This document shows positions 7,092 through 63,270 of a stretch of 64,000 bases of DNA, in pieces. The notes under the pieces were generated by a model. It saw nothing but the letters and a program-made list of their open reading frames with translations, had not been told where the DNA came from and did not search any database. The position numbers and the translations under genes are program-made. Source of the DNA: Blepharisma japonicum (taxonomy: Eukaryota > Ciliophora > Heterotrichea > Heterotrichida > Blepharismidae). Location of the stretch: positions 62,001 to 126,000 of the forward strand of contig CATKHK010000037.1 of NCBI GenBank assembly GCA_949751835.1. Reading direction: 5' to 3'. Within the stretch, counting starts at the first letter, position 1. Each line of letters begins with the position of its first letter.

Positions 7092-8559
7092 AATTTCTTT
7101 CAATATTTTATAGTTAAAAATATATATTTTAGATTTAATTTATAAACCTCTATCTTTTTGATATATTTTTATATAAAAATGATATTTAAATCAAAATATT
7201 TGATTTTAAGTAATCTCTTGATAATAATTTTTCATCCTCGCAAGATGACAATAAAATCTTTAGCTGACTACTAAAAATTTTAGACTTATTAAATATTATT
7301 GAGTAAAAAAATTTCAATTTTAAGCTTAAAATAAATTTTATTTCATAATTAGAAATTAATAAAATATTAATATTAGCAATTCTTTAATTTAAACATCTAT
7401 TTCTAAGTTTTTGGTAGATACATTCCGTCATGTTGTATCTGAAATAATTATTAATTTATCAATTATCTAATGATGGCTTGATTTAAATTGTTTATAATAA
7501 CGAATATTAAAATGATGATAATGCATAGATTTATTTAGCGCTAATAAATAACTCGATTTTTACATTTTAAAGGCAAATGTAATATACTTATTAATCTTAT
7601 TTACTGGAAAACGTGAAGTCTTAATTTTAACATTTAAGTGGAATAAATTGTCTTTATGCTAAAAAATAATTGAATTAGATATTGAAAAATAATTAGAATA
7701 ATAAAAAGAGTTATATCATATTCACATTGTTTAGTAATCAAAATGCGTGAGATATTTTAAAATCATTTACCCCTAAATTTTTGGAAGTTGAAAATTACAA
7801 GATTCTTATCTTTTTAATGATTAAGTGAAGTTTCGCAAAGGTATAAAAAATTCTATAGGTCAAAGATTAACTTATAAACAATACTTAATCATCAAGGAAA
7901 ATAAGATAGCAATAATAATTAATTTTATGATTGCAGGTGCATAATCTATTGCAACCTATTCCTATTCCTTAATCTAGTTTTAAATATTAAATTTATCATT
8001 ATCAAGTTTGATTAAATGATTGCGAAAAGATAGTTTGGTTTCTTTGAAACCTTAAAGTGAGAAGATCATCTTTCTAATTAAATTATTTTTTTACTTCGTA
8101 AAATGCAATAGAAATTCAGAATGTATTGCAATTTTCAAGTTTGACAACGATTTATATTAGAATTCGCATTTGTATAAAAAGGCAAAAGTATAATGGTGCC
8201 ATATTATATATAGATAAAGCTATTCAAGATGTAAAGGAAATCAGTTTTTTTTTTTAGACAACTATTTATTTATTATCTGAGTCTTTTATTAGCAGAAGAA
8301 AAAGACAAAGAATGATTTTAATACGCGTAGAATAAAAATATAAATTAATATATTTAGCATTTCAAGTGATAATACGGAAATCACCCAAGTATAATTAAGT
8401 ACAAATAAAAATTAGGATTTTTGATAGAAATAAAAAATTTCAGAAGAAAATGAATTAAATTCGTTTATTATCATATAAATATTAAGGTTTTAATGAGCAT
8501 CAACTTCAAACATAAGAAATAAATTTTTATATAGATTACAACTTAGATCTAATAATTTA

Positions 8560-18700: not shown

Positions 18701-20345
18701 CAGTGCACACACTGCAAAGAGGGTCTTCACAAACATTGCAAGATATACTTCTGACACAGCCATTATTACATGAATTACAGTTTTCAGACATTGCTCCATT
18801 CATTCACTTGCTTAAAGGGCACGTCCAAAGACAACTAGCTATTGCTCCTATGCCACATATTTTGTCTGAGTATTGGGTATCGAAGCGTGAAACAGCTGTA
18901 TTCCACAATGTAAATTGGTATAAATATCCTGAAAAATTGCTTGAAGAACTTTTCCCAAGAATTATAATGCTATTGACAGCATCTCTATATATATATCTGC
19001 TAGATGTAATTGAGGGTTTTTGAGAATTGTTGAGATAAGGAATAATTGTTGTAGAAACTGTTAGCGATGAAAATGAAATAGTAAAAGAAATGAAAGCTCA
19101 AGCTGAATTTGAAGGATTAAGTGCATCAGTTTTTACTTTTATTGGACTAGCTCTTCCCTTAGTTTCTAATGAAATAGTCATAACTCCACTTGCATCTATC
19201 GTTAATTTATTTCCATTTGTTAAGATATCTCCTGAGTCAGATAATATCAAAACCCAAATTCCAATTGAAAAGTTCAGAGAAATATAGACAGCTGACGTTG
19301 TTTGAAGATAGGAGCCTCCAGAAAAGTAAAGTCCTCGATTTTTGGCTGGAATGGGATCTACAATTTCAGGGTTATTAAAAATATAATAAGTGCTTGAGCT
19401 TGTTCCTGTTTGAAATATTCCATAAGCTCCATAAAAATAATTTGCAAAGTTTTGATCAATTACTGCATTCGAAACTGAGTTGCAAGGTGAGTCAAATCCA
19501 TATGGACACGCTTTTAAGCAAACACTTTCAACTAGCACGTTTGACCCCGAGCAAGCTGCACAAAGAAAAGTATCTGAGTTGCATAATATGCATGGGTTAT
19601 CACAAGAGACACATTGTCCTGATGATGCCTGTCAGAAAAGCTCTTGTTTACAATTGCACACTCCGTTAATAAGGTTAGCAGAAGAAATGCATTTATTACA
19701 AGTTAAATCCGGCATATTGCATTCCAAGCATCCTGCTTGATAACACATATTGCAATTATCAGCCACACTACAGTTTCCTTTCACCAAAATTAATCCTGAA
19801 AGAGTTGGATAATTCGAATTTTTCTCAAACTGAACTGAAAATTTGCCATCTGAGTAAGCTCCTGATATTGAGGTTCGATTAATAGAAACTGCTCCATTTA
19901 GCAAGTTGAAAAGTATAAATATATCATATGCTGTATCTGATCCTACTTTATCGAATAGATTTAAATGATCAGCAACAATATAGTCTCCAACTTTAACAGT
20001 AAATTCAAGTTTATTAGACAAATCCAAAAAAATTTCAGCAAATTGGAGAATAAGCACATATGTTCCATCTTCACTAATAGGAAGATCATATCCTCAATTT
20101 CCATCATATAATCGTTGAGTTTGGTAAATAAACTGATTCGCTGTATCTTTAATAGCTCTATTAACGGATCTGGAAGCACTACTTTCTTGGGTATAATATT
20201 TATCAGCTCAGTATAAAAAGCCGGAAGTGGATGTATATTCTGTACCTCCTGCATTGATAGCAAAAACAATAGTTGAACTATCAAGTGAGAAAATAAATAA
20301 TAATTTCAAAGAAAGCAGGGCAAATCAAAGCTGGCGAACTTTCAT
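15734..20345 (-). pseudogene. malectin/LamG/Cys-rich membrane protein, copy 3 (frameshifted)
   Basis: An inverted copy with the family start MKVRQLWFALLSLKLLF, malectin domain, two LamG-like domains, Cys-rich blocks, membrane segments, the tail motif APWSPTFRS and 15-nt introns at 16400-16414 and 16127-16141. Compared with the other three copies it lacks 2 nt near 17320, just after the third Cys-rich block (TGCATATATCCCC here, TGCACATATATCCCC in copy 2). The upstream frame then ends at TAG 17297-17295 after 1,016 aa, before all membrane segments. The downstream frame stays open to the normal stop and keeps both introns, so the break is recent or is a sequence error. No 15-17 nt GT...AG intron can explain it. 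If translated as is, the product would be a secreted ectodomain. Confidence 0.8.
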
Positions 20346-22861: not shown

Positions 22862-25800
22862 ATGAAAGTTCGCCTGCTCTGTTTTGTTCTGATTTCTTTG
22901 AAATTATTATTTATTTTCTCACTTGATGCCTCAAATGTTGTTTTGGCTATCAATGCAGGGGGTACAGCATATAATTCCTCTCTTGGTTTTTCATACTCAG
23001 ATGATGATTATTATACGCCTGGAAGTACGCCTTCCACTTTCATTAATGAAATTATTAAAGATACAGAGAATCAGTTTATTTACCAAACTGAACGATATTG
23101 CAATAAAAGTTGAGGATATGATCTCCCTATTACGGCAGATGGAGCATATGTACTTATTCTTCAATTTGCTGAAATTTTTTATAATCTCTCTAATCAAAGA
23201 GTATTTAATGTGTTTATTGGAGATTATACTATTGCTGAAAATTTAGATCTAATCGCTAAAGTAGGAAAATTCACAGCTTATGATATATTTACACCTTTCA
23301 ATTTCTCAAATAGAGAAATCTCTATTAATAAAACTACGATAAGAGGAGCTTACTCAGATGGCAAATTATCAGTTCAGTTTGAGAAAAATATTGAAAACCC
23401 AAAACTTTCAGGATTAATTTTGGTTAAAGGAGACTGCAGCGTGGCTGATTATTGCAATATGTGTTATCAAGCAAGATGCTTGGAATGTAATGAAGCGGAT
23501 TTAACTTGTGATAGTTGCATTGCTAATGCTATCAAAACTAATGAAATGTGCAATTGCAATGCAAATGCTTTCTGAGTAGCATCATCAGGACTATGTGTTC
23601 CTTGTGATAATTTATGCACGTTATGCAACTCAGATATTTTTATTTGTGGAGCTTGCATAAACGAAAATGTGCTAGTTTCTGGTGTTTGCTTAAGAGCGTG
23701 CCCATATGGATTTGACTCACCTTGCAGCTCAGTTTCGAAAGCAGTAATTGATCAAAACTTTGCAAATTATTTTTATGGAGCTTATGGAATATTCCAAACA
23801 GGAACAAGCTCAAGCACTTACTATTTTTTTAATAACCCTGAGACTGTAGATCCCATTCCAGCCAAAAATCGAGGACTCTACTTTTCTGGAGGCTCCTATC
23901 TTCAAACGACGCCAGCTGTCTATATTTCTCTGAACTTTTCAATTGGAATATGGATTTGGGTATTCTCTGACTCAGGAGATGTCTTTATACATGGAAATAA
24001 AATAACGGTAGCTGCAAGTGGTGCTATGACTATTTGATTAGAGAGCAAGACAGAAACTACAACAAAAATAATAACTGAAGCACTCAATCCTTCAAATTCA
24101 ACTTGAGTTTACATTTCATTTATTATTTCATTTTCAGAATCAGCAATTTCTACAACTATTACTCCTTATCTCAACAATTCTCCAAAAACTTCTACAACAT
24201 CTAGCAGGTATTTATATAGAGACGCTATTAGTAATACTCTAATCCTTGGGAAAAGTTCTTCAAGCAATTTTTCAGGATATTTATACCAATTTACATTGTG
24301 GAATACAGCTGTTTCAGGCTTCGATACCCAATACTCAGACCAAATATGTGGCGCAGGAGCGGCAGCTAGTTGCCTTTGGGTGTGCCCTTTATCCAAGTGA
24401 ATGAATGGAGTAACATCTGCAAACTGTGGTTCGTGTGCAAATGGCTGTGTCAGAAGTATATCCTGCAATGTTTGTGAAGACCCTCTTTGCAGTGTATGCA
24501 CAGGATTCTTAGCAGGGCTTTGCACCAAATGTGTTTCTAATGCATCTGGAACTCCTTGTTTTTGCAATGTTGGCTATTACTGAGATTCAACAACATGAAA
24601 ATGCGAAATATGTGATTTCACATGCAAAAATTGTGCATCAGCAGCTTCAAGTGACTGCATAGTTTGTGCATTAGGCTTTTATATGTACCTAGGATGGTGT
24701 ATTTCTAAGTGCCCAGATGGATTTATAGAAAGTGGGTCAGTTTGTGTTGAAAATGATCCTTTCATATTTTACCTCTCATTTGATACTCTAGAAGGAGTTG
24801 TTTTTGACAAACAAAGCAAAATTCCAGCCTTAACTGGAAATAGCACAGATTTTTATCCAGATTATGACGAGCATGATCCAGTGGCAGCTTTTCTCAGAGG
24901 ATTTTACTTTAATGGAGTAAGCTCAATGATGCATCTACCAATTTATTCTGGATACAGTAATCCAGTTCTCAGCTTTGGTTATTCATTCACTTTTTCTATC
25001 TGAATTAATATAGAAAATGGCTTTGGAACTATCATTTCAAAGCAAGATTTGCTTTATAATCCAATATTCTCTCTCCAATTAGCAGCTGGAGTTCCCATTA
25101 TTTCATTAAACTTTAAAGCCACTGGATTGACTCCATTCTTTTATTTGCAAAGTCTTAAATCCTACGAATGGACTCATATTGCACTCACAGTAGAATATAC
25201 AAATTCGAAAGAGACCAAAATGGTCTTTTACCTAAACGGAATAATAGATCACCAGCTTAATTTTGGATCTGACTATTTTAAAGATACCAAAACAGATATC
25301 ACTTTTACTATAGGAGCAGAAAAAGATTCAGCAGGATATAGGAGCTATTTTAAAGGATTTATTTATGAAATCAAGGGCTATAACTCAGTATCGAACATAT
25401 CATCACTTGTATCTCCTGCAGAGCAGTGCACAGAAAATTGCAAAGCATGCCTTACAAATGGAATTTGCATTCCAAATTGTCTGATTAGCCAATATTGGAA
25501 TGGTCCACAATATAATAAATGCTATAATTGTAACAGTGGATGCCTTAGCTGTAGGGATTCCAGTAATTTTTGCAATCTTTGCAATAACCAAAAATGTGCA
25601 GCCTGCTATGATTTTACCTCAGAATCTTGTCTTAAATGTGCCCCTGGAACTTCCGATACAACAAATTGTCAATGCGACTATGGTCTTGCTTGAAATTCAA
25701 CATTAGGAGTCTGTGAAACTTGCCATCAATGGCAATTCAAAGCAAATGATTCTTGCTATGATTGTCCTCCTCTTTGTGCTCAATGTGATAACGAAAGTAA

Positions 25801-27467
25801 GTGCACATGATGCATTAGCAATGCTGAACTGAGCTCTGGAAAGTGTGTTTGCTCTCCTGGATACATAGGAACAAGTACATGCATATACATCCCCTTTGAT
25901 GTTTTTCTTAGCATTAACAAAAATAACACCCTAGTTTTAACCTTCAGCGAAGCCTTAAAGCAAGATTTATGAAATGAACAAATGTTGATACAAATTAAAA
26001 ATAGTACAATTCAATCATGATCAGTTTCTAAACTTTCAAGCACAGAATATTTAATATCATGCAGTTTTGACGGAGAAATTTCAGAAGGCACGCTAATTAC
26101 GGTGTTTTTTATAAATCCGATAAGTATTATGTCTATCTCTGGAGGTGTAATTCATGAAAAATATTTATCAGGCTCTTTGTATAGCTCTTCAATGAATAAT
26201 GAAGAGCAAGAAGTCTTTCAAATTAAAAAATTATTCTCTTCTAGAACAGGGATTTTAGTTGCCTCAAGTGTTGCTTTGTCGTTGTTTAACCCAAACCCTT
26301 CATTACTGTGAAGTATTCTAAACAATATTCAATTACTCTCTTATATACCTTATGCAAGCTACCCTTTGACAGATAAAGTTTCTAAGTTTTTTAAGTCTTT
26401 AGCAGATTTCAAAATTGTTCCTAACTTGTTTTTATTTTGTATTAATGAAAGTGAGAGTAATAATCCTTATTATCAGGCGAGAAGATATGGCTATGATAAT
26501 TATTCGATGCTTGTGAACATTGGGGATAATTTATGCGCTCTATGCGGTCTTATAGCTATAATCCCTCTAGTTTATTGTCTTTCTAAATGCCCCCTAAGAT
26601 GCATTGAAAAAAAATTTAAAAAAATGTTCAGAGATTATAAATTTGGTGTCTTTTTACGATTTTGGATAGTCAGCTATCTTGAAATTAGCTTTGCCTCTAT
26701 AGTTGGAATTTTGAGCACAAAAGATAATAAAATATTAGAAAATCCTCTAATATTCACTAACTATATTCTTTGTTGATTTTTCATCGTAATTATAAATTTA
26801 GATTCCTATTGTAATTTCCCCGTTTCTTCATGCATATTTTAGCTTCAAAAATTTGAACAAAATTATAAATAAAAATGATAAAGAATGATTAACAACTTGA
26901 GAATCCTTATACTACGAGTTCAAGAACAACGCAGGATTCATAAGCACGCAATTTTATACCCTATATTTTGCAAGACGATTAATTTTTATTATTGTTCAGA
27001 TATTTTTAAATGATAGCCCTCAAGCTCAGCTCATAATTAATGCAATTTCATCTTTATGTGTATGCTTTATATAGATTGTTTTATTTTTAATTTTCTATCG
27101 ACCTTTTGAGGATTCAGTTATTCAATGAATTAACCTAATTACTGAGTTTGGGACTTTTATTATATTTATTCTCCTTAGTCCATATTTTTTTGATCTAGAG
27201 TCATTCAGCATTAAAATAATGGACAATTTAATTATTTATTTTACTACTTGTCTCATGGCAGTCCAAACAGCTGGGCCTTTAATAAATTCTTTAAAAGAAA
27301 TTTATTACATTTCTAAAAGAAAGAAAAAAAAGCATATTCATCCGAATCCGGAAGAGCCAACTCAAGATAATAGTTTTTTTATAAAGACTCTAACAATGTC
27401 CTCGGACACACCATGATCACCAACTTTCAGGAGCAATGGCAAAAAATTTATCATTTTAGGATCTTAA
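22862..27467 (+). CDS. malectin/LamG/Cys-rich multipass membrane protein, copy 4
   Basis: 1,524 aa with TGA as Trp. Introns are at 26786-26801 (16 nt, the only one of this length in the window) and 27060-27074 (15 nt), at the same positions as in the other copies. The order is signal peptide (MKVRLLCFVLISLKLLF), malectin-like domain, Cys-rich block, LamG-like domain, Cys-rich block, second LamG-like domain (WTHIALTVEYTN with FYLNGIIDHQ), invariant third Cys block, membrane segments (LCGLIAIIPLVYCL, FLRFWIVSYLEISFASIVGIL) and the tail TPWSPTFRS, with the tail Trp encoded by TGA at 27414. The stop is TAA 27465-27467. The frame is intact. Likely a cell-surface carbohydrate-binding receptor or adhesion protein. 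Confidence 0.9.
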
Positions 27468-33296: not shown

Positions 33297-33390
33297 AAAA
33301 AAATCACTGTGCCAGGAGAAGTAGTTTATACCCGAAGGCATTGTCGCATCTTCTCAAGAATGAAATGAAGTATCTCCTTAGCATTGGACT
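33297..33390 (-). ncRNA. small structured RNA gene, copy A (pol III type-3 layout)
   Basis: Read on the minus strand: box TCCCATAATAAAAAT (33450-33436), 21 bp later TATA box TTTATAAA (33418-33411), and about 28 bp later the RNA, ending in a 7-T run (33303-33297). GCTAAGGAG (33382-33374) pairs with CTCCTGGC (33318-33311) through four pairs, one bulged A and four more. Between the arms lies CAATGCCTTCGGG. The same layout recurs at five other sites in the window. The box-TATA spacing and T-run are those of U6-type RNA polymerase III genes. No known RNA family was recognised. The 5' end is estimated from the TATA position. Confidence 0.65.
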
Positions 33391-33459
33391 ATTCATGATT
33401 TGTTCGTTCTTTTATAAAGGGCAAAAAAATGGAGCATTTTTATTATGGGAAATTATAAG

Positions 33460-38086: not shown

Positions 38087-41000
38087 ATGAAAAGTCTGAT
38101 AAGCTTTATTGCTTTAATATGACTTGCTTTAGCTGACCCTACAATGAGTTCGAAGAATGGATACTTAGATCCTGGAAGAATTACTTGGTGGCAAGATAAG
38201 TGGGCTCCTAATCCAATTGAGCTCACTCAAACTAATTCTGGGACCAGCAATGTTTATGTGGTTGTCCATTTTAGACCTTTTACATCTATAAATTCTAGCG
38301 GAAACTCTGGAATTGTACAATTGATTGTCCCATCATCCTTCTCAAGCCAGGGAACTTATTCCTCATCCTCAATGACAATTACAGGAGGAACTGATATGAC
38401 AACACAATTCCTGTTATCAACTTCTTTACCTTCTGCAGGAGTTTATGGACCTTTCCAGCTGATTACTAGATCTTCAACAACTGGGCAAATCTACGATACA
38501 AACTACGTATTCGGTTGTGTCGCAGTTTCTGCCTCAGTCACAAGCTCATCTTCTCTGACAGTATCTGCTGCCACACTAACTGCAACAACTGGCATTGTCG
38601 GTTCAAAGGATGCCCTCATTTTCTCTTTTTCACTTCCTTCTGGCACTAATCTTTGGAAGCATGACATTTTTGAAATTGTCCCTGATAGCCATTGGACTAT
38701 CAATGCAAGCCCTACTTGTGCATCAGTCGACATTTCTACAGTGACAAACTATATCAAAGGCCCTAATGGTGATGATTCTTTACCTTGTGCAATTGCAGCT
38801 ACTGGAGGCGCTAATGGAGGATTTAGCACTTCAGCATCAACAGCTACTCCTGCTACAAATAGTATATATATATATGGACTGTCTCAAGATGCGATTATTA
38901 ATTCAAGCTACCAGATCAAGCTTCAAGTTTCTACCTTTACTTTTCCATCATCTGCAGTTACATCATCAAGCTACTCTTGGACACTAAAATTATGGAGATG
39001 GGGAACAACTAATTTACTTGCCCAATACACTGGAAGTGGACCTTTTACCCCAGCTACAGGAGCAGTCACAGTAACTTCATGGGTTCCTTATAATTCAAAT
39101 GTGGCTAATACAGATATCCCAAGCACTAATAGTTTTTCAATCTTCACCAAGCTTACTTTTCAATTAGCTCATCCAATTTCATCAGGAACAATTGCTATTA
39201 CCTTTTCTGGTGCAGATATATCAACAAAAAATTGGTATCAAGATGAAGCAAGTGGCTCAGGGACACCTGGATTGTGCTATTTGAATAATTATGTATCTGG
39301 AGTAACTTGCTCCGTGTCCTCTTCAACTGCAACGATAACTATAAGCGGAGCTACTTTGACAAGTTCTTCATCAATTTCAATTACACTTTTGACTCAGTTG
39401 CAATCAACAGCTAAAGTCAGTACAATAGTTAGCAATGATGGAACTGCAAATATCGATGCATTGGCTACTGCATATTCCTGGACTTTCAGCTCTGCTTCTG
39501 CTTCTTCTTATGCAGCAATGACTACCTTCACGTTTTTTGCAACTGACCAGGATAAGTTTCTTGGTTATACTGGACTCACCCCAGGGATACAAATAGGAGG
39601 CAATCTTGCTACTAGTCAGTATTTACAATGGTTTGTGCAGCCATCAACTTCATGGGGGACTGGATCAACTCTAAAGGTTTATTTACCTTTCTCTACTACA
39701 GGAGTACAATTAACCCAGACTTTTATAAAATCATCTGCACTGTACTCGGATTTAACTTTTTCTAGTACTTCAACAGACCAAGCACTTTCGACATCGAATG
39801 GAAATACTGTAACACCTACTTCTGGTACTCCAGGATCTATTTCAATTGCTTTTGCTTCATCAAATGCTCCAGTAGTAGGCACTACTCCATACTTTGTTTT
39901 TTCATATGGAGATCCAGCATCAGGTGACACAAAAACAACTGCTCTACCATTCGTTCGATCAAATAAAGGCACTTTCTATGAGTGCTGGGCAAAAGGCTTT
40001 ATGTCAAGCAGTTCAACAACAGCAGTTGAGTTCTCCAGTTTTGTTTTCTCAGTTTATAGTTCACAAACAGATAGTCTCTTGACGGCAACTCCAATGTGCA
40101 CAGACAAATTTGCTGGAATTCCTCTTATTGTTAATTTTCACGCTTTAAATACAGCCTTTAACTTTGGAGATACAACAAATCATTATTCTCTTGATGTGTC
40201 ATTTACTAGCGGTGTTGCTACTAGTAATTTGGGTTCTGGTCTAGCAGATGGTAGCACTATTCCAGTGACTTCTACATCAGCTTCAGTCAGCCCAACAGCC
40301 ACTATTACCTCAAATACAGTGACAATATCTGGATTAGGAAATGTAAGCAGTGGCAGCACGGTTACTGTATTGATACCAAATGGATTGCCAACTACAACAA
40401 TAGCTGCGAGCATAACATTTTACTATGTTCCATCAGGATCAGATCCTTCTTTACAATATGTTTTGTATACTGGATCATCTACAACAAGTTTAAACAGTGG
40501 TTCTGCTGCTGGATACGCAAGCAGCTCAGTAACAAGCCCTACATCTTATACAGTTGGTGGCAGTGCAGCTACTACTTCTGGATCTGCTATGGTTAGCACT
40601 GCAGCTACAGTTAATTCTGGAGATTGAATTGGAATCGGCTTGCCTGCAGGCTTCACTCTGTCATCATCTGGCTACTCAGTGGCATTAGGAGGTGTATCAT
40701 CAACAGCTTACACTGTTTCTTCATCAAGTAACTCATTTACTGGAGGATTTATAGTTGGAACTGTTGCAAGTGCCATTTCCCTTTCAACATCTACAGCAGC
40801 AACCTTTACAATTGGTGGCTTGATTCCTTCAACAACTGCAGGGTCAAGTACAACTCCACATTCAGCCAGCTTAGTTGTTTTCTCTGCATCTCAATCTGCA
40901 ACATCAGCTGCATGCTATTCAGTAGGTAGCATTACAGTATCTATTGCCGCAGCTACAATTACATCTGACACATGCACAATCGATAAAGCATTTACTCAAG

Positions 41001-44000
41001 GCTCAGACTCTGTAGATTCCACCCTTACTCTTACATTCACAACTGTCAACACTATCCCTGGACAAGGAACAATAACACTTACCCTTTCTTCTAGCACATG
41101 GACTACGAGCTCATCAGCTGTAGCTACCACTTGCGAAGGAGTTGGCTTTACTGATTATTCTAATGCTGTTACTAAAAGTTGTGCAATTTCTGGAACAACT
41201 GTGACTTTAACAGGATTTGCTTCAATCGCAGCAGGAGTTGTTACTATCAAAATCTATCACATAATTCCTACTACTACAACTGCAGGATCAATTACCTGTT
41301 TTTCAGCTGTAAGCACATTTGATTTAAGTGGCAATATTATAGATACCCTTGGCGCTGCAGTAAATTCTGCCTCTTTAACAGCTTCAACAGCTGCCGGCTC
41401 AACAAATAGTGGACTAGTAGCTAAAGCATATCCTAATATCGCTGGAGCAACTTCTGACATCTATTTAAGTTTTTCTTTTTCTAAATTAATCCCTGCTGGG
41501 AGTATTATACAGATCAACCCTGGATTTGTTAGCTCTTGGGCCTTATCCTCGTCCACTATTCAAAATTCCTGCTGGACTGACCAATACACTTCTTCTTGCT
41601 CTGTCTCTGGTAGTTATGTATCTTTGACATTAGGAAATTCTCTGTCTGCCAGTCAAACAATGCAAGTTTACCTTGATGGTGCTTTAACTTTGCCTACTAC
41701 TAACTCTACTACAGCCGGATGGACAATTTCAACTACATGGAATGGAGTATCAATCACTGCAGATTCTACATCAGGCGCTACTGCAACTTTCCCATTCGTC
41801 ATTGGGACTGCTGTTAGTAATGCTATTACATTGTCATCTATTGTCCAAGTTAATACGACTACTGCAGGAGAAGTTTCTTCCTATCTTTTTACATTTTCAT
41901 CAGCATCAGCTGTGGCAACTACTGATTCATTCATTATTCAGTTCCCTAAAGACTTTGACCCCCATGTAGGAGATGCAAAGCCAGTCTTAAATGATTGCTC
42001 CCCTAATAACTTTTATCTTACTTGTGGATCAAGCGCACTTGGGATTCCAAGTGGAACACTTTGCAGTGTTGACCATTGGTATGTTGTTGTTACAGGAATT
42101 ACTAAGACATTAGCCGTATCTACAAGCATTGATATTCAAGTCAACATGGTCCAAAACCCACAAGTAGGAACTACCAGTGGAAAATTCAGCTTTTACCAAT
42201 ATGGATCAGATGGATCTGTAAAGTCTTATCTCCAATCAGCCAGCACTGTTACAATTGGAAGCAACGTGGCAAATATTGTTTCACTTAAAAACGTTACAGT
42301 TGATACCACAGAGCTAGCAAACTCAGCCACCTACACTTTTAACTTCTACGCAGCAGCTACATACACCCCAGACTACATCATTTCTATCTTATTCCCTCAA
42401 CAATTCAACAACCAATTGAAAATGGGCACTTCATCTACTTGCAAATCTGTTTACTATGACGAGTCTTCCTCATCTACAAGCACTACTACCAGCACTGCAT
42501 TTAGCTCTGCAACATCTTGTTCTGTAAACGGAAATAATGTCACCCTTTCATTCCCATCAGGGACAAGTATAACAGCAGCATCCACCTCAAGACTCCAAAT
42601 CCAACTTACTTCTTTCTACAACCCTGAATGGGGATTCACCAGGACTGCTGGCTGGGATGTAACAGACTATGGAACATTTACTGGAACAACTTCTCCTGAC
42701 GAATGGAGTAATAAATTCGATATTGCAGTTTCTCAATTCAGCACAGGCAAAACATACGCTAGAAGCTATGGTGTCCTCCACTCAGCTTTTATTGGGTATA
42801 CATTAAGCACTACTGATATTAGCATTGGAAGTTATGATCCAACCAATACTTCAGGAGGGATAAAATTACTGCCTGGACAACAAAGCTCCGATATCACTAT
42901 TTCACTTCTTGATAGTAATAGCTGGCCTATGAAATCAAAATCACTCAAACTGACCCCAACTTCAAACGCTAATTACCCTGATGGCGGAAACCTCAAATAC
43001 ACATCTGCTCAGTATAGCTTCACAGCCTTCCAGATGATTTCTCAAATTAAATTCAGAGTAGCAGCATCAAGCAGCGCAGCATCTGGAATTTATTACATAG
43101 ATTGGGGAACACCTGTTGAAACATTACAAGATGGAGTTTCTAGTCCTTTATACAGCGCCCCATTGAACATCTTGGTTGAAGTTTGCAGTTCTTTAACAGC
43201 TATATCTATTACAGTGGATCCTCTACCAAGCATTTACCAATACTACATCAGTCTTCCAATCAGAGTGGCTCCTGCAACTCCTCCAGCAACTCAATTAATA
43301 GTAACCCCTTCAGCTTCAGTCACAGGATTTACAATCACCCCAACTTCCCTTACATTTGGCCCTGATGTAAATGAGCTTTATTTCCAAGTTCACGTTGGTT
43401 CTACTTATGTAGCCTCCTCAACATCCCCATCTATTACATTTACCCTCTCAGGAACTGATGCCGCTGCCTTTACAGCCCCAAGCAAGGTGACTGCTACTGT
43501 TTTAACAACCTATCCTTCTGTTGTTGCAGCCACGCCAGGATTATCAGGGACTAAAGTAAGTGCATCAGAATACAAGATTGCAGTGACGACGTCAATAGCT
43601 GGAGTTTTGTATTGGGGTCTTGGATGCCAAGGTTCTCAGGTCCTTACTTTCTCTGGGCTCTCCTCTTTGGTTTCAGATCTTGTTACCCCATCCAGTAGCA
43701 TCTTAACCCTTGAAGAACAATTAGCAAATGAGTATAAGAGCACTGAGACAGATATTAATACTTCTAAAGGTGATACTGATATCAATTCTTTCTTCAAAAG
43801 AATCCATGCTGAGCATTGCAATGATTATTGGGCTTCATCACAAGTTATTACAACTTCAGGCGTTACAGTTGACTTAAACTGGCTTATGGCAGGAACAAGC
43901 TACACCTTTACAGCTTATATTGCTACAAGATTGACCAATGATACAACAGTTTACCCGATCAAGACTTATAACTTTACCACAGATGCTCTTGCTTCTATCT

Positions 44001-44770
44001 ACAGCACATCAGTCACTTTTTCACAATCTGTTACTGCTAGTTCTAGTAGCAATATTGCTAAAGTTTTGGCTAAGAATATGGGTGTGAATCCTTCATGGTT
44101 AACTTTAACAGGGACATCATCTACTAGGCTGCTTCAAAGCAGTACTACTAGCACTACAACATTTACTTATAATGTTCTTGCTGACAGTAGATATCCACTC
44201 TATACTTCTTCAGCTATGATAGCAAATCTCAATACAAACCAAGCTCAGGCAACATCTGACTTCACCAACTTATATGCGTTGACTGCTACAAGTGTGGGAA
44301 CATCCACAGCTGTTTCAACTGGAACAACTCCATCATGGACTACTGCCCCAGCAAAATCTACAGTCGCTGATACATCTGCGACTTTTACAGCAACTTCTTC
44401 ACAGGCAGGAACCATATACGTATCATGTTCTGATAATGATTTGACTAGCCGCATTACTTATGCCTGGCAAGTTATGGATGGATTAGATGCTGCATCTTCT
44501 TCAGTGCCATCATCCAGCGTTGCAAGCGTTGCTGCTACAAGTGAAACTCTTACTGTCTCTGGCTTGACAGCAGGCACTGCTTATGTTTGCTACTTTACAG
44601 CATGTAATAGTTATCCATTAAATCCACTTTGTATTGACTATGTCGCAACCAGCTCTACTGCTCTGGCAAGTGTTTCAATTACAACTTCAGGATCTTCAAG
44701 CAGCTCAAGCAATGCAGTTTTTATGGAAGTGAGCGCAGCGTTGGCGTTCCTCTTAATCTTACTTAACTAA
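38087..44770 (+). CDS. Z1: giant Ser/Thr-rich surface protein, probably GPI-anchored
   Basis: 2,227 aa in one exon. Signal peptide MKSLISFIALIWLALA (its Trp is TGA), then a conserved start GYLDPGRITWWQDKWAPNPI. A long series of beta-sandwich-like modules rich in Ser, Thr, Ala and Gly follows (for example VTISGLGNVSSGSTVTVLIP, TLTFTTVNTIPGQGTITLTL). A C-terminal region contains YWGLGCQGSQVLTF, NDYWASS, WLMAGTSYTFTAYIATRLTN and LAKNMGVNPSWL. It ends with a Ser stretch and a short hydrophobic tail (AALAFLLILLN), typical of a GPI-attachment signal. No membrane span remains in the mature part. Tryptophan is TGG 31 times and TGA only twice (codon 11 and codon 847). Likely a major surface-coat or adhesion protein; the family was not identified. 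Z2 follows in tandem. Confidence 0.9.
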
Positions 44771-45537: not shown

Positions 45538-48500
45538 ATGAAAAGTCTTATAAGCATAATAGCAATTATATGACTTGCTACTTCAGATCCTACAATGATA
45601 TCGAAGGATGGGTATCTAGACCCTGGCAGAATAACTTGGTGGCAAGATAGCTGGGCTCCAAATCCAATTGAGCTTTCTCAAACCAATGCAGGAACGAAAA
45701 ACGTATTGATTACAGTAAATTTCAGACCTTTCACATCTATAAACTCAGATGGAAGCCTTGGAATCATCCAAGTGACAGTCCCATCAAGTTTTTCAAGCTC
45801 TACAACAACTACAACATACACTTCAAGTCTCATGGAAATCTTAGGCAGCACTGATTATACTTTTTCATTCAAAGTCTCATCTTTGCCTTCTCCAGGAGTT
45901 TATGGGCCAATTCAGATCGTTACAAGATCTACAGCGACTGGGCAGATTTACGACGCAAACTACGTATTTGGCTGCATTGCTGTTGGGCCTTGGACTTCAG
46001 GTCCTGCTTCAAATTCCTTAAAAACAGCTCCAGCTACGCTAACTTCGACAAATGGCTATGTTGGCTCAAAAGATTCAATTATTTTCACTTTTTCAATTCC
46101 TGCTGGGCTAAATTTGTGGAAGCATGACATTTTTGAGATAATTCCTGACAAATATTGGATTATTTCTACAGGTAATTCTACTTCTATTAGCTGCTCTTCA
46201 ATAGACGTTTCGGCGAATTCTACTAACTACATTACAGGTCCTCAAAACGATAACAGCTTACCGTGTGCTGTTGCTATGTCAGGAGGCGCAGGTGGAGGAC
46301 TTCAGCCTTCTCAATCAGCAGACGGACAGACAAATAGTGTTTATATTTATGGACTTTCTCAAGACGTGATTGTGACTTCAGCTTACGATGTCCAGCTTAA
46401 GGTTGGAAATTTCATTTTTCCTGGATCAGCTAGGCCTATGACAGACTATTCTTGAAAATTAAACATTTGGAGATGGGGAACAACAACTTTGCTTGCCCAA
46501 TTCATGGGAAGTGGACCTTTAACTCCAGCAACAGGATCCATAAAAGTAATTTCATGGGCTCCTTATAACTCTAAAGTTCAATCTACTGATATTCCAAGCC
46601 CTAACACCTTCTCTATCTTTACAACAGTAACTCTTCAAGTTTCTCACGCAATAGCTACAGGAACAATAGCAATTACCTTTTCTAATGCAGATATTTCAAC
46701 TGCCAAATGGTATCAAGACCACGCAGATTCTTCATCAGGCACCGCTGGGTTATGCTATCTCAATAGCTATGCTCTGGGAGTGTCTTGTAAAGTTAGCGGT
46801 TCAATCGCAACGATTACTTTTGACAGCACAAGTGCAGGTTTAGCAGCTGAAAAGTCAATTTCTATTACATTATTAAATAAGTTATCAGCAAATGCTCAAA
46901 TTAGTTCAATAGTAAGTAGTGATTCTGCTGCAAAAATTGATAAACTGGACTCTGCATTCGCTTGGTCATTCGGCACTTCTTCATCTTATCATGCAATGAC
47001 AGGTTTTGAATATTTTGCGACAGATTCATATAAGTATAAAGGAAATTCTGGATTTACTTCAGGCCTCCAAATAGGAGGTAACCTCGCCACAACCCAATAC
47101 TTAATGTGGTTTATGCAGCCATCAACAAGCTGGGCTGCTAACACTAAACTTACAGTCAATTTGCCTTTATCTACTTCTGATGTACAATTAGCTCAAACTT
47201 ATATCAATATTGCCTCTCAGTATTGTGACGGCGTTTTCTCTGATTCAACTGTTGATACTACCCTAAATCCTCCCTCATCTACTGGCAATTCTCCTAAGCT
47301 TTCTAATGACTCTCCCGGGTCAATAACAATCACTTTTGCCGCAGGCAATTTTCCATCTGCTAATCAATATTTCTCCTTTGCATATGGAGATCCATCCTCT
47401 GGTGACACAAAAACGACAGCCCTTCCTTTTGTTCAATCTAATGTCGCTACTTTTTATGAATGTTGGGTACAAGTTACACCATCAGGGAGTTCCTCGCCTA
47501 CTGAGTTTTACAATTATGTTTATTCAGTCTACACCTTGCAAACAGATCCTAGCTTGACGGTTGCTCCATTATGCACTGATAAATTTGTAGGAATCCCTAT
47601 TGCTGTCACTTATCATGCTTTGAATATGGCTTTCAGTTTTGGGGATAAAATCAATTCTTATTATCTTGATGTTGCTTTTAGTGATGGTGGAATCAATTTA
47701 GGCACTGGGCTAAGTGATGGGAGTAGTTTGCCAGTGGCTTCTAAGAAGTCTGATGTGACTCCTGTCGCTACTATAACATCAAATACTGTGACTATTTCAG
47801 GGCTTGGAACTGTTTCTAGTGGAACTTCTATAGTGATTTTGATGCCTAATGGAGCGAGTGGTGGATCTTTATCAGGGACTGCAACTTTTTATTATGTGCT
47901 AGTTGGAGGAGATCCTAATATAAAGATGCTATTGTATTCTAAGTCATCCACAAACAGTTATAGCAGTGGCAATACAAATGGCTTTAGTTCTTCAGCAATT
48001 TCTACTCCTCAAAATGCAGCTTTTACCGTAGGAGCAGCTTCAGCTACATCTAGCGGAACTTTTCTGGCATCTTCTTCAGGAACAGTTTCGCTATCAGATT
48101 GAATTGGGGTAGGCTTGCCTTCTGGATTTACCATTGCAGCATCTAGCGCTTCATTAGGATTTGGTGGAACTTTATCAACAACTTATGTAGTTTCTTTATC
48201 AACTAGCTCATTTATTGGAGGATTTATAGTAGGGACAATTTTAAACCGAATCTCACTTTCAACGACTTCAGCTTCAAGCATTTTAATAGGTGGCTTGACT
48301 GCACCATTGTCGACGGGACAAACTACTGATACAGCTTCTAATAATTTAGTAGTTTTTGCAGCATCAGCAACCGCAGGATCAGCGTGTACAGTTATAGGGA
48401 ATGTAGGGATAACAGTTAGTGCAGCTAAAATTACATTCGATTCATGTGTGCTTGATAAGCCATATACCCAAGGTTCAGATTCTGTGGATTCCACTTTAAT

Positions 48501-51500
48501 TCTTTCTTTTACAACTGTAAATCCTATTCCTGGAAATGGAAAAATCATTATCACCTTGGCTTCGAGTACATGAGCGTTGCCAAACTCTTCGCCTTTGATT
48601 GCAACTTGTGAAGGGAAATCATTTGCTGATTATTCTGAAACTATCCAAAGAGCTTGCACTATATCAGATACAACTATAACCTTAACAGGATTTGCTGCGA
48701 TCTTAGCAGGACAAATTTCTGTAAATATTTACCATGTCATTCCATCATCGACTACAACTAGTTTGCCTTGCTGTACAGATGTAAACACATATGATGCAGG
48801 TGGATTTCTTATAGACTCTGCCAAAGCTTTAACAAACACTATTTCAGTCGCAACTTCTAGTGATATAGGGAAAACAAATACAGATTCTTTTACAGCAAAA
48901 GCATATCCCAATGTAGCAGGAGCAGTTTCTGATATTTATCTGAGCTTTTCTTTCTCAAAGCCAGTTCCTCAATATAGTATAATAAAAATAAGCCCAGGAT
49001 TTGTAAGCTCATGATATTTCTCTGGCGATATTACCAATTCATGCTGGACGAATAAAGATACTTATTCTTGCTCTGTTTCTGATAGTTATGTATCACTGCA
49101 GCTGGGTAGAAGTCTTTTAGCTAGTGAGCAAATCCAAGTTTATCTTGATAGTGCACTGACTTTGCCGGCTTCTTCATCAACTTCTGCAGGTTGGACACTT
49201 TCGACATCATGGAATGGGACTCCAATTACAGCGGATCCGAACCCGTCAACTTCATTTTTATTCACTGTGGGAAGCTCAGTTGCGAATAGCATTTCTTCCC
49301 TAAAAATATCGCAAGTTAATTCAAACAGCGCTGGAGAATCTACATCATATGCTTTTACTTTCAGCTCAAGCTCAAACATAACAGTAACTGATTATTTTGT
49401 TATAAAGTTTCCTAAGGAATTTGATCCACATATTGGAGGTGCAAAATTGGCGCTGACTGATTGTTTTTCAAGCAATTGGTATCTTATTTGTAGTTCTACA
49501 GCGTTAGGAATTGATAGCGGCTCACTTTGTAGTGTTGATCATTGGAAACTTACTGTATCTGGAATTACTAAAGCTGTGACAGATACTTCAGCAATTATTG
49601 ATATTACTGTTAATATGATCCAAAACCCAGCTGCAGGAACCATATCTGAAAAGTTTAGCTTGTATCAATATGGATCAGATGGATCTATAAAAGCATATAT
49701 TCAAAATACTGGTTCATTGACTATTGGAAGCGTTGTAGCGAATATTATCTCTCTTAGAGATGTCACTGCTAGTTCAGTCGAGCTTTCTGCCTCTACTACT
49801 TATACTTTCAATTTCTATGCGGCAGCTACATATACCGCAGACTACATTATCTCTATCAACTTCCCACAGCAATTCAATATGAAACTAAGAAATAAAAGCA
49901 CTATCCAATGCGATTCTCATTATTTTGATGAATCATCCTTATCTAAAAGCTCAACAAGCGTGCAATTTAGCAGTGCAACCTCTTGCAGTATAAATGACAA
50001 TAATATAAATCTCCCTTTTCAATCAGTATTTAACTTAGATTTAGCATCAACTTCAAGAATTCAAATCACATTGACGTCCCTTTACAACCCTGAATGAGGG
50101 TATACAAGAACTACTGGGTGGGATGTAACAGACTATACTACCTTTACAAATGCTTTACCTGATGTATGGAGTAATAATTTTGATATTACAATATACGAAT
50201 CAAGCACTCCAAAAACATATGCAAAAAGTTATGGGGTCCTAAATTCAGCTTATGCTGGATATACATTAAGCACAACTGATATAAGTGCTGGAGCTTATAA
50301 ACCAAATACAGCATCTGGGGGTGTAAAACTACTGCCTGGGCAACAAAGCAAAGATATTACTATTTCTGTTGTTGATAGTAAAAAATGGCCTATGAGGTCG
50401 AAAACATTGAAGCTTAAGCCAGCAACAAATGCGAATTATCCAGATAATGGAAGCATTAAATATACTTCTGCTTTTCACAATTTTATTACTTACCAGATGG
50501 TTTCTGTAATTAATTTCCGAGTATCAGCTACAATAAGTGCAGCTACAGGAATTTATTATATTGATTGGGGAACACCAGTAGAAACATTACAAGAAGGAGT
50601 TTCAAGCGCAATATATAGTGCACCAGTAAGTATGTTGATCGAAGTCTGTGGCTCTTTGCCCGCTTTATCTATTTCTGTAGATCAGTTGCCCACATTCTAT
50701 CAATCCTTCGCAAGTCTTCCTATTAAAGTTTCTTCTTCATATCCTCCTGCTACCCAATTAATAGTAACCCCATCATTTTCAGTATCCGGGTTAACAGTCA
50801 GCCCTGCTTCTCTTACATTTGGCCCTGATGTGGATGAGCTTTATTTCCAAGTTTACGTTGGCTCTACTTTTTCAAGCAAGGAAACTTCAGTATCTCTTTC
50901 ATTTAAACTCTCAGGAATAGATGCTTCTGCTTATGCTGCCCCAGCTAAGATGACAGGATCAGTTTCTTCAACTTTACCCAAGGATGTAACAACTACTCCA
51001 GTCATTGCAGGGACATCGATAAGCGGGTCTGAATATAAGCTATCTATAAGTACTACACTGCCAGGAATTTTATACTGGGGACTTGGATGTCAAGGCAAAA
51101 AAATACTAAATTATGGAGATTTAGTATCTACAATATCTGATCTTGTAAATCCTTCTAGTGATATTCAAACACTTCAAGAGCAATTGGCATATGAATATCA
51201 ACATACAGAAACTGATATTAATACTGCAGAAAAGGATACGGATATATATTCGTTTTTTAGAAGGGTCCATGCTGGGCATTGTGATAACTATTGAGCATCG
51301 TCTGAGGTTATTAGTACTTTAGGGACCACGCTTGATTTAAATTGGCTAATGGCAGGAACGAGCTATACATTTATAGCTTATATTGCAACAAGATTGACTA
51401 ACAATACAGCCGCTTACCCCCTGCAGACTTATAATTTTACCACAAATAGCATTGGACAGCTATATACCACCTCAGTCACTTTCAACGGAACTGTTTCCAG

Positions 51501-52188
51501 CAACTCTAACAACGCTATCAAAAATGTTTTAGCGAAGAATATGGGGGTCAATCCTTCATGGTTAATTTATAAAACTTCATCGAGAAGAAGATTAGTTGAT
51601 ACTGTTACTACAACATTTAATTATAATGTTCTATCTGACAGTCGATATCCAGCATTTACTTCACAAGCTATCATTGAAAATCTCAATACAGCCCAAGCTG
51701 TATCTGACTTTTCCAGCTTAGGTTTTACAATCATAAATATTGGAGGGTCTAATGCAATTTCAGCTGGAGAAACCCCTCAATGAACATCATCTCCAGTAAT
51801 GCAGTCAATTACAAAAACATCCGTGACCTTAGTGGCAGCAACATCTGTGGCTGGAAAAATTTACACTTCATGCACTGTTAATGATATTACAGGCCATAGG
51901 ACTTATGCTTGGCAGATTGTTGATGGATTAGATGCTACTTCCACTAGGGTTAAAACAGGGAGTGCTGTGAGCACTGCATCTAATATAGCTCCTATTATTG
52001 TTTCAGAATTAGATGCTGATACTTTTTATATTTGTTATTTTACAGCTTGCAATGATTATCCATTGGCTCCTACCTGCATTGATACAAATTTACCAAGCTA
52101 TTCAATTAGAACTAAAGGCGATTCAAATAATGCACAAATGATGGGAATAAGTGCGACTTTGGTATTAATTTTAGTTTTTCTTAGCTAA
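45538..52188 (+). CDS. Z2: giant Ser/Thr-rich surface protein, probably GPI-anchored
   Basis: 2,216 aa, one exon, collinear with Z1 from signal peptide (MKSLISIIAIIWLA) to the hydrophobic end (SATLVLILVFLS). Shared landmarks are GYLDPGRITWWQDSWAPNPI, NLWKHDIFEIIPD, GDPSSGDTKTTALPF, TSRIQITLTSLYNPEW, YWGLGCQGKK, LMAGTSYTFIAYIATRLTNN and LAKNMGVNPSWL. TGA is read as Trp at about eight places, including the two places where Z1 keeps TGA (signal peptide and DWIG, here codon 855). It is more AT-rich in codon choice than Z1. Predicted role as for Z1: an external coat or adhesion protein fixed to the membrane by a lipid anchor. Confidence 0.9.
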
Positions 52189-52629: not shown

Positions 52630-52715
52630 AAAAAATCACAGCACTAAGAAATGCGTTTATACCTTAAGGGATTGTAGCTCAAATAAATGAATTAGCTCCT
52701 TGGCATTGAACGATT
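52630..52715 (-). ncRNA. small structured RNA, copy B (degenerate)
   Basis: Minus strand: box TCCCAAATAAAAAT (52751-52738), a weak TATA-like stretch (TTTATTAAAC), then CGTTCAATGCCAAGGAG, and a final GTGATTTTTT (52635-52630). The 5' stem arm is intact but the 3' arm (TTCTTAGTGC) has lost most pairing. Clearly a family member, perhaps decayed. Confidence 0.4.
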
Positions 52716-53150
52716 ATAGTTTAATAAATTTTTGTTCATTTTTATTTGGGATAATTCTAATATATAAAATCATGCATTAAAAAACCAAATAAAAATTCAA
52801 TAACAAAAATTTTAATATTTAATATTTGACTAATGCATCCTCATATATTAAGTAAAGTATTCAAACTATAAACTGATAAAAATTTTCAACTCTAATAAAT
52901 TACATTATTCATACAAAAACCTTTGTCCCAAATTATTTTAGCTAATTAATTTTTGGACTTTATTGCATTAATATCAGATGAGAACCGAATTTAATTTCTT
53001 AGCGGCCCATCAAAACTTTAGATAGTTTTTTTGGTTATAAAAGAGATACTCCATAGCATACTTATCAGCAAGCTATGAGTAAATAAATGTGCAAGATTGA
53101 AAAATTAAAATCTTTTGCAAGGTGTTTAAACTTTCTCTAAAATTGTAGTT

Positions 53151-53240
53151 AAAAAGCCATTGCGCCAGGAGATGTAATTTTGGCCCGAAGGCAATGTTTT
53201 GATGAAAGATAAAGAAGTATCTCCTTGGCATTGAGCCAGC
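53151..53240 (-). ncRNA. small structured RNA, copy C
   Basis: Minus strand: box TCCCATAATAAAATT (53297-53283), AT-rich TATA-like stretches at 53275-53257, then GGCTCAATGCCAAGGAGATA, an internal GCCTTCGGGC that can form a UUCG-tetraloop hairpin, then CATCTCCTGGCGCAATGGC and a 5-T run (53155-53151). GCCA[A]GGAGAT pairs with ATCTCCTGGC with one bulged A. Same family as copies A, D, E and F. Confidence 0.6.
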
Positions 53241-53299
53241 TATAATTTGCAAAACCATTTAAAAACTTTATAAAATCTGAAGAATTTTATTATGGGACC

Positions 53300-62296: not shown

Positions 62297-62397
62297 AAAA
62301 AGCCACTCTGCCAGGAGAAGTAATTTTTTAAAGGTTCTCAGAATGAAGAAATGAATGAATAAATAATTTAAGTACCTTTTAGGCATTGAACCATCTG
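62297..62397 (-). ncRNA. small structured RNA, copy D
   Basis: Minus strand: box TCCCATAATAAAAGA (62451-62437), a poor TATA region (CCTTAATAGAAGG), then GGTTCAATGCC, and a 3' part CTTCTCCTGGCAGAGTGGC followed by a 5-T run (62301-62297). The 5' stem arm is altered (TAAAAGGTACTT), so pairing is weaker than in C, E and F. Family membership is clear; activity is uncertain. Confidence 0.5.
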
Positions 62398-62451
62398 TGC
62401 TTTGCTTATCCTTCTATTAAGGATAAAAAACTGAAGTCTTTTATTATGGGA

Positions 62452-62658
62452 TCTTACAAATCTCTAATGAAATATTTTATGAACAGTTAAAAATAGATCA
62501 TCTCATCCAAGGTAATTAGCATTTCTCTAGCAAAGGAGACAAAACAATTTAATATATCTAAAAACTTCAAATAGGTTTACGTAAAAGACTAAAATTCGAC
62601 TTAATAATTATTAAATCAGATTATTGCATCAAATATGTATTTAGTAATCGCAAAACTT
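62452..62658. other. spacer between small RNA copies D and E
   Basis: AT-rich, no gene. Confidence 0.5.
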
Positions 62659-62748
62659 AAAAGCAACTGCGCTAGGAGAGATAATTTAAACCTGAAAGCA
62701 TTTTTTTGATTTCACCATGAAGTATCTCCTTAGCATTGTGCCAATTCT
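62659..62748 (-). ncRNA. small structured RNA, copy E (compensatory stem change)
   Basis: Minus strand: box TCCCTTAATTAAAAAT (62802-62787), 16-20 bp later TATA box TTTATAAA (62770-62763), then GGCACAATGCTAAGGAGATA, and 3' CTCTCCTAGCGCAGTTGC with a 4-T run (62662-62659). In this copy both stem arms changed together: GCTA pairs with TAGC where other copies have GCCA with TGGC. This supports the base-paired stem in the RNA. Confidence 0.6.
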
Positions 62749-62802
62749 ATTTTGCCCAGTCTTTTATAAAGTTAAAAAAGTTCGTCATTTTTAATTAAGG
62801 GA

Positions 62803-63126: not shown

Positions 63127-63212
63127 AAAAAGCTATTGCGCCAGGAGAGGTAATTTTAACTAGAAAGCATTGTCTCCATTTAATAAGAAGTATCTCCTTG
63201 GCATTGAGTCAA
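63127..63212 (-). ncRNA. small structured RNA, copy F (best-preserved)
   Basis: Minus strand: box TCCCATAATAAAAAT (63270-63256), exactly 21 bp later TATA box TTTATAAA (63238-63231), then GATTGACTCAATGCCAAGG, AGATACTTC, a variable middle, GACAATGCTTTCTAG, AATTACCTCTCCTGGCGC, AATAGC and a 5-T run (63131-63127). The closing stem is GCCA[A]GGAG with CTCCTGGC. Spacing of box, TATA and T-run is the same as in copy A, 30 kb away. Confidence 0.65.
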
Positions 63213-63270
63213 TCGTAATTTTCGCATCCTTTTATAAACCTTGATACAATTAGACATTTTTATTATGGGA

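What the first reader, a model, noticed from the sequence alone, without database searches (positions are those of the whole stretch)
63127..63270. A dispersed family of U6-like (pol III type-3) genes for an unrecognised ~90-nt RNA
Six minus-strand units (A 33.3 kb, B 52.6, C 53.2, D 62.3, E 62.7, F 63.1) share an upstream box TCCCATAATAAAAAT. The best copies have a TATA box 21 bp (A, F) or 16-20 bp (E) further on, a conserved RNA region beginning about 28 bp later, and a terminal T-run. The RNA has a closing stem with one bulged A and a conserved CAATGC near each end. Outside these blocks the copies differ freely, as expected of functional elements. Known U6, U6atac, tRNA, 5S and SRP RNA signatures do not match. 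In general shape (short RNA, bulged terminal stem, oligo-U end) it resembles Y or stem-bulge RNAs, but no Y-specific motif was seen.
Basis: partly seen in the sequence, partly recalled or inferred. Interest (0 to 1): 0.85.

Follow-up and report, generated by a model that had tools for sequence, protein, structure and literature searches.

The report
Vault-RNA-like gene family in a ciliate
A single-celled ciliate, probably a Blepharisma, carries about 26 scattered copies of a small RNA gene with a U6-type promoter, and the RNA looks like the vault RNAs known from animals and trypanosomes, which would make it testable whether ciliate vault particles carry RNA.

Summary
The six minus-strand units belong to a family of at least 27 loci (26 near-complete, one fragment) in the 45 Mb genome. 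In 24 of 27 a box (T/A)CCCATAA lies 58-62 bp before the conserved start; the one U6 gene found has the same box at the same distance and TATTTAA at -28. A type-3 pol III promoter is thus well supported; transcription was not measured. Homology mostly stops at the gene's ends, so this is not a transposon end. Covariation supports a terminal stem, internal loop and second stem with a bulged A, the layout of vault RNA. Rfam's vault model matches 4 of 22 copies scanned, full length, at 21-28 bits, below its cut-off of 34; it matches none of the six window copies. A genome-wide scan gave one match, a family copy, at E 0.75; 7 of 14 control genomes also gave sub-threshold matches. Three major vault proteins and three TROVE proteins are encoded. 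Best reading: candidate vault RNAs, not filed as RF00006 members.

The parts
63127..63210 (-). Copy F: RNA from the predicted +1 to the T-run
   Evidence: R1 match 63127-63214, 95.2 bits; +1 taken as the first base of the terminal stem
63256..63270 (-). Copy F: upstream box (PSE) TCCCATAATAAAAAT at -60
63230..63236 (-). Copy F: TATAAAA at -26
   Evidence: coordinates counted from +1
62659..62742 (-). Copy E: RNA
   Evidence: R1 match 62658-62746, 94.7 bits
62788..62802 (-). Copy E: upstream box TCCCTTAATTAAAAA at -60
62762..62768 (-). Copy E: TATAAAA at -26
   Evidence: coordinates counted from +1
62297..62392 (-). Copy D: diverged RNA copy, not in the training set
   Evidence: R1 match 62297-62396, 45.5 bits; no TATA found by the script
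62437..62451 (-). Copy D: upstream box at -59
53151..53237 (-). Copy C: RNA
   Evidence: R1 match 53151-53241, 99.6 bits
53283..53297 (-). Copy C: upstream box TCCCATAATAAAATT at -60
52630..52712 (-). Copy B: probably decayed copy, box altered and too close
   Evidence: R1 match 52630-52716, 34.7 bits; promoter not found by the script
33298..33390 (-). Copy A: RNA
   Evidence: R1 match 33298-33394, 88 bits
33436..33450 (-). Copy A: upstream box TCCCATAATAAAAAT at -60
33410..33416 (-). Copy A: TATAAAA at -26
   Evidence: coordinates counted from +1

Best explanation
The units are genes of a multigene family of small structured RNAs, most likely the vault RNAs of this ciliate. (1) RNA polymerase III is recruited by a gene-external type-3 promoter, box (T/A)CCCATAA at -60 and TATA at -26/-28, as in the genome's own U6 gene, and stops at a T-run (promoter shown by comparison; transcription inferred). 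(2) The RNA, 80-160 nt, closes its ends with a 4-bp stem, an internal loop and a longer stem with one bulged A, followed by the strand UACUUC, and has a variable middle (shown by covariation). (3) This end structure is the part shared with vault RNAs and is inferred to bind a TROVE-domain protein; the genome encodes three. (4) The RNP is inferred to sit in vault particles built from the three encoded major vault proteins, or to be partly free, with the variable middle available to other partners. Steps 3 and 4 are inference.
For: Vault model RF00006 matches four distinct family copies full length, in register with the independently drawn structure, at 28.0, 26.5, 22.2 and 21.4 bits; no vault row falls elsewhere in the 42.9 kb scanned or in the 64 kb window. 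Aligned features: start G, terminal stem, internal loop, GCU-A, bulged A, GGAG, UACUUC, GCGC, terminal stem, U-run. The whole-genome RF00006 search returned one match, a family copy. The vault 5' arm (16 nt) is matched at 10-13 of 16 at the same place in 23 of 24 copies computed, window copies A, C, E, F (11-12 of 16) included. Three MVP genes; two scanned have all five Pfam vault domains. Three TROVE proteins of about 600 residues; TEP1's TROVE domain followed by vWA binds vault RNA (PMC7916137, passages). Size, pol III type and terminator fit.
Against: All vault scores are below the Rfam cut-off of 34; 18 of the 22 copies scanned and all six window copies give no vault match at E <= 10. In one search the match has only E 0.75, 7 of 14 control genomes also gave sub-threshold matches at E <= 10, and only 49 of 2815 candidates were scored, so the better-scoring copies were not reached. 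In one search the 3' arm is in register in 19 of 24 copies and five copies (two on C2, one on C62, B and D) are matched or beaten by 10-81 of 400 shuffles; the arms were chosen after the match was known. No usual box A then box B order was found. TROVE proteins also bind Y RNAs. No expression or binding data.
Confidence: 0.7

Rival explanations
1. The RNAs are Y-RNA-like partners of Ro60-type TROVE proteins and not vault components; the end stem resembles that of vault RNA because the same protein fold reads it.
For: Three TROVE proteins of about 600 residues, nearer in size to Ro60 than to the 240-kDa TEP1; a Ro60-type vWA match just over the cut-off in one and just under it in another, none in the third.
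Against: No Y RNA row in any Rfam scan of the family, also at permissive E-values, while vault rows recur; MVP genes are present. In PDB comparison human RO60 is only a marginal match (E 0.23).
Confidence: 0.15
2. A ciliate-specific class of pol III RNAs, unrelated to vault or Y RNAs, comparable in kind to the Class I RNAs of dictyostelids; the vault matches are convergence or chance.
For: Vault scores are below the cut-off and absent for most copies; Class I RNA genes also have an upstream element about 60 nt before the start, a covarying end stem and a variable middle (PMC7919456, passages).
Against: Four copies match the same model full length and in register, out of 4227 families tried.
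Confidence: 0.12
3. The block is the end of a transposable element or a SINE-like repeat.
For: Dispersed copies on 11 contigs, some truncated.
Against: For most pairs similarity begins just above the box and ends at the T-run; longer similarity is limited to duplicates (C144, C186, C213 and, older, one C37 copy; C80; C2) and one 333-bp, 67% match between flanks of two C37 copies. Stems are kept by compensatory changes.
Confidence: 0.02

Closest known systems
Vault RNAs of deuterostomes (Rfam RF00006)
   Same: Terminal stem, internal loop, 4 bp, bulged A, 4 bp, UACUUC strand, GCGC at the 3' internal loop, variable middle, oligo-U end; small size; MVP in the genome.
   Different: Terminal stem 4 bp instead of 6 in the model; scores below cut-off; promoter appears wholly external, whereas animal genes have internal boxes A and B plus, in some, external PSE and TATA (PMC7058938, PMC10491885, passages); 26 copies instead of 1-4.
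Vault RNA of Trypanosoma brucei (TBsRNA-10)
   Same: Proposed on short conserved 5' and 3' stretches forming a bulged terminal helix, pol III product; the genome has three MVPs (PMC9326685, PMC12547018, passages).
   Different: A single vault RNA there; association with TEP1 and MVP was shown there and not here. Its sequence was not compared.
Y RNAs
   Same: Pol III product, oligo-U end, closed ends with a bulge, TROVE partner.
   Different: No Rfam Y RNA match in the scans made; Y-specific stem motif was not compared letter by letter.
Class I RNAs of dictyostelids
   Same: Multigene family, covarying end stem, variable middle, upstream element about 60 nt before the start (PMC7919456, passages).
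   Different: 42-65 nt, 11-nt motif, other end sequences.

Membership tests
Vault RNA (RF00006) | Score at or above the Rfam gathering cut-off of 34 bits | tested here: not met
   Best 28.0 bits; 4 of 22 copies matched at E <= 10; 0 of 6 window copies
Vault RNA (RF00006) | Terminal stem, internal loop, second stem with bulged A, UACUUC strand, U-run end | tested here: met
   cmscan alignments of copies on C37, C46 and C80; structure in 27 copies
[quoted passage not shown]
   Best box-B match is at the 5' start in 24 of 27 copies and best box-A match near the 3' end in 19 of 27, the wrong order; only best matches were scored, and T. brucei shows that the class is also drawn wider
Vault RNA (RF00006) | Association with the vault particle or TEP1 | not testable with these tools
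   MVP and TROVE genes are present; binding unknown
Vault RNA (RF00006) | Transcription by RNA polymerase III | tested here: inconclusive
   U6-type promoter and T-run; no transcripts available
Y RNA (RF00019) | Match to the Rfam Y RNA model | tested here: not met
   No Y RNA row at E <= 10 in 22 copies or the window
U6 snRNA (RF00026) | Match to the U6 model | tested here: not met
   The genome's one U6 match is another gene, C30:85468-85571; no U6 row on the family
Dictyostelid Class I RNA | Length 42-65 nt | tested here: not met
   Family copies are about 80-160 nt against PMC7919456
Dictyostelid Class I RNA | 11-nt motif next to the 5' stem | not tested
   Motif letters were not retrieved
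Transposable element end | Homology extending beyond the box-TATA-RNA block in most copies | tested here: not met

The most novel reading that the evidence does not exclude
Vault RNA is an ancestral eukaryotic RNA that this ciliate has kept and expanded into some 26 genes under a purely U6-type promoter, with a constant TROVE-binding end and a different middle in nearly every gene, so that the vaults or TROVE RNPs of one cell carry a set of distinct RNAs.
Probability: 0.35. Interest if true: 0.78.

Novelty: new variant of a known kind. Interest (0 to 1): 0.62.

Why it matters
Experimentally validated vault RNAs are listed for vertebrates, sea urchin and T. brucei (PMC7058938, passage), with candidates in other trypanosomatids (PMC9326685, passage), although vaults themselves are inferred for the last eukaryotic common ancestor (PMC12547018, passage). 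A vault RNA family in a ciliate would put the RNA in a further, distant part of the tree and make it testable whether vault RNA is as old as the vault. About 26 natural paralogs would also show which part of the RNA must stay constant. Searches for earlier reports: 'vtRNA' with 'ciliates' gave one paper, a trypanosomatid review; 'vault RNA' with 'Tetrahymena' gave 18 papers, 15 listed, of which I looked into two, PMC7916137 and PMC6315972, the latter with a passing mention only. The Blepharisma stoltei genome paper has no occurrence of 'ncRNA', 'Rfam' or 'vault' in its main text (PMC9942806). Most subscription papers are outside this library, so an earlier report cannot be excluded.

Tried and rejected
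Chance: rejected. Transposon end or SINE: flank comparison, rejected for most pairs. tRNA: none in the window (ARAGORN, bacterial code). U6 itself: a different gene. Rfam at curated thresholds: no match in the window. Folding energy of single copies: no support. Other genes under the same promoter: CCCATAA-N23-25-TATTTAA gave 16 sites, namely 9 family copies, 1 truncated family copy, U6, and 5 with no R1 match; the backward-pattern control gave 13, so those five may be chance. Relatives in other collections: two MAG contigs share the 20-base word but do not match the model, no viral contig does. Family copies next to MVP or TROVE genes: none convincing in L051-L053 and L056-L058 (best 14 bits, E 0.42, inside the L053 TROVE gene); the same call shows a weak 16.5-bit, E 0.086 match on C62 (L061) that I did not follow.

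Papers: PMC12547018, PMC7916137, PMC7058938, PMC10491885, PMC7919456, PMC9326685, PMC9942806, PMC9841428 and PMC6315972 were seen as passages through 'find', none in full. Kolev 2019, Stadler 2009 and Poderycki 2005 are not held and are known to me only from citations in other papers and from recall.

Full report
Setting. Long frames appear when TGA is read as tryptophan; six long genes hold 2-14 TGA codons each and end in TAA or TAG. Code and size fit Blepharisma (B. stoltei: 41 Mbp, UGA = Trp; PMC9942806, passages). The genus is an inference.

Observation. The six units are present. A DNA search with copy F finds nine places; patterns for the 5' and 3' blocks find 29 and 11 places, against 4 and 0 for the patterns read backwards. 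Not all 29 are family members. A covariance model R1 from nine copies gives 27 matches, all at distinct genome positions, in the 17 loci searched at E <= 0.1: nine on C37 (A-F and three outside the window), three on C2, two on C30, one on C46, two on C62, one on C72, five on C80, one each on C144, C186 and C213, and a fragment on C118. The loci on C144, C186 and C213 share long flanks (88-92% identical), so they may be recent duplicates or alternative haplotypes. Further broken pieces lie in the C80 and C62 clusters. The genome could not be searched with the model itself, so 27 is a lower bound.

Promoter. With the first base of the terminal stem as +1, the box (T/A)CCCATAA lies at -58 to -62 with at most one mismatch in 24 of 27 copies, at exactly -60 in 17; the exceptions are B, one C30 copy and the C118 fragment. 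A TATAAAA- or TATTTAA-like site, up to one mismatch, lies at -26 to -29 in 17 of 27; the script keeps one candidate per copy, so this is a lower bound. The one U6 match found (C30:85468-85571, 92.8 bits; 47 of 6053 candidates scored) has TCCCATAA at -60 and TATTTAA at -28 when counted from the base just before the model match, that is -61 from the match itself. Ciliate telomerase RNA genes are also described as type-3 pol III genes (PMC9841428, passages). A U6-type promoter is therefore well supported; transcription was not measured.

Structure. RNAalifold on nine copies, unguided, draws a 4-bp terminal stem and a longer stem with one bulged A; four pairs have both-side changes. On all 27 copies 93.5% of cells pair (shuffles 87.7%), 31 cells have changes on both sides (shuffles 10.7; 0 of 500 as high), and sliding the partner by 1-3 columns destroys the signal. 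The clearest pair is G-C in 16 copies and A-U in eight. That alignment was fitted to the structure and the copies are related, so the numbers lean in its favour. Seventeen copies have letters at the columns of the small hairpin (94% of cells pair), ten have gaps. Single copies do not fold better than shuffles.

Boundaries. For most pairs the similarity starts just upstream of the box and ends at the T-run, about 150 bp, with unrelated flanks. Longer matches belong to duplicates on C144, C186, C213 and, older, one C37 copy, and on C80 and C2; one 333-bp match at 67% between the flanks of two C37 copies is unexplained. This is a gene with its promoter, not the end of a transposon.

Identity. At curated thresholds Rfam finds nothing in the window. 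In permissive mode on 14 loci holding 22 of the 27 copies, ten rows came back: five are vault RNA, on four distinct family copies, full length; the other five are five different families at E 1.6-6.2, none on a family copy. The four copies score 28.0 bits (C37, just outside the window), 26.5 and 21.4 (C80) and 22.2 (C46). The alignments put the start G, terminal stem, internal loop, GCU-A, bulged A, GGAG, UACUUC, 3' strand, GCGC, terminal stem and U-run in register with the structure drawn beforehand from other copies. Against this: every score is below the cut-off of 34; A-F give no vault row at E <= 10 in the 64 kb scan, nor D-F in a 1 kb scan. The whole-genome search with RF00006 gave a single match at E <= 10, the C80 copy at 21.4 bits and E 0.75; it scored only 49 of 2815 candidates and so missed the better copies, and 7 of 14 control genomes also gave sub-threshold matches. 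Scaling the best E-value (0.00019 for 201 bases) to 27 copies gives roughly 0.003; this is my arithmetic.

Arms. An ungapped comparison with the two vault arms was computed for 24 of 27 copies before the script stopped. The 16-nt 5' arm matches at 10-13 positions at the same place in 23 of 24 (all but D); the 13-nt 3' arm is in register in 19 of 24. In 19 of 24 at most 2 of 400 shuffles do as well; the two C2 copies, one C62 copy, B and D are reached by 10-81 of 400. The window copies A, C, E and F are reached by 0, 1, 0 and 1. The arms were chosen after the match was known, so this describes the likeness and is not an independent test.

Partners. Three genes match the MVP shoulder domain at E 3e-49 to 7e-44; the two scanned hold all five Pfam vault domains. 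Three TROVE proteins have open frames of about 600 residues. A Ro60-type vWA domain is just over the cut-off in one, just under in another and not seen in the third. In TEP1 the TROVE domain, followed by vWA, is responsible for vault RNA binding, and TEP1 is related to Tetrahymena p80 (PMC7916137, passages).

Conclusion. Because the Rfam cut-off was tested and not met and no binding is known, I call it a candidate vault RNA family and do not file it under RF00006. Animal vault genes combine internal boxes with external elements, at least in some genes (PMC7058938, PMC10491885, passages); here only external ones are evident. The T. brucei vault RNA was proposed from short conserved arms forming a bulged terminal helix, and was shown to co-precipitate with TEP1 (PMC9326685, passage); the second kind of evidence is what is missing here.

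Noticed in passing
window 1008-4955 (+), 8620-12561 (+), 17295-20345 (-), 22862-26842 (+): Four paralogous proteins, 75-80% identical; the two scanned carry a malectin and a laminin-G-like domain.
   Followed up: partly
window 38087-44770 (+) and 45538-52188 (+): Two paralogs of about 2,220 residues, 58% identical, with no Pfam match at E <= 0.001.
   Followed up: partly
C80:170114-173792 (L023, L025, L076) and C62 (L037, L084): Clusters of family copies with truncated pieces beside them, a 5' fragment with promoter on C80 and a 3' fragment on C62, suggesting gene birth and decay by tandem duplication.
   Followed up: partly
C80 copies (L023, L025): These copies lack the small hairpin; three share the string AGTTCTATCC in the middle part, loosely like a box B.
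   Followed up: no
C61/C62 neighbourhood, L061 4147-4224 (-): Weak R1 match, 16.5 bits, E 0.086, on C62 downstream of the two copies there.
   Followed up: no
window 8026-8090 (+): Weak match to the bacterial SurA sRNA model, 26.4 bits against a cut-off of 100, probably chance.
   Followed up: no
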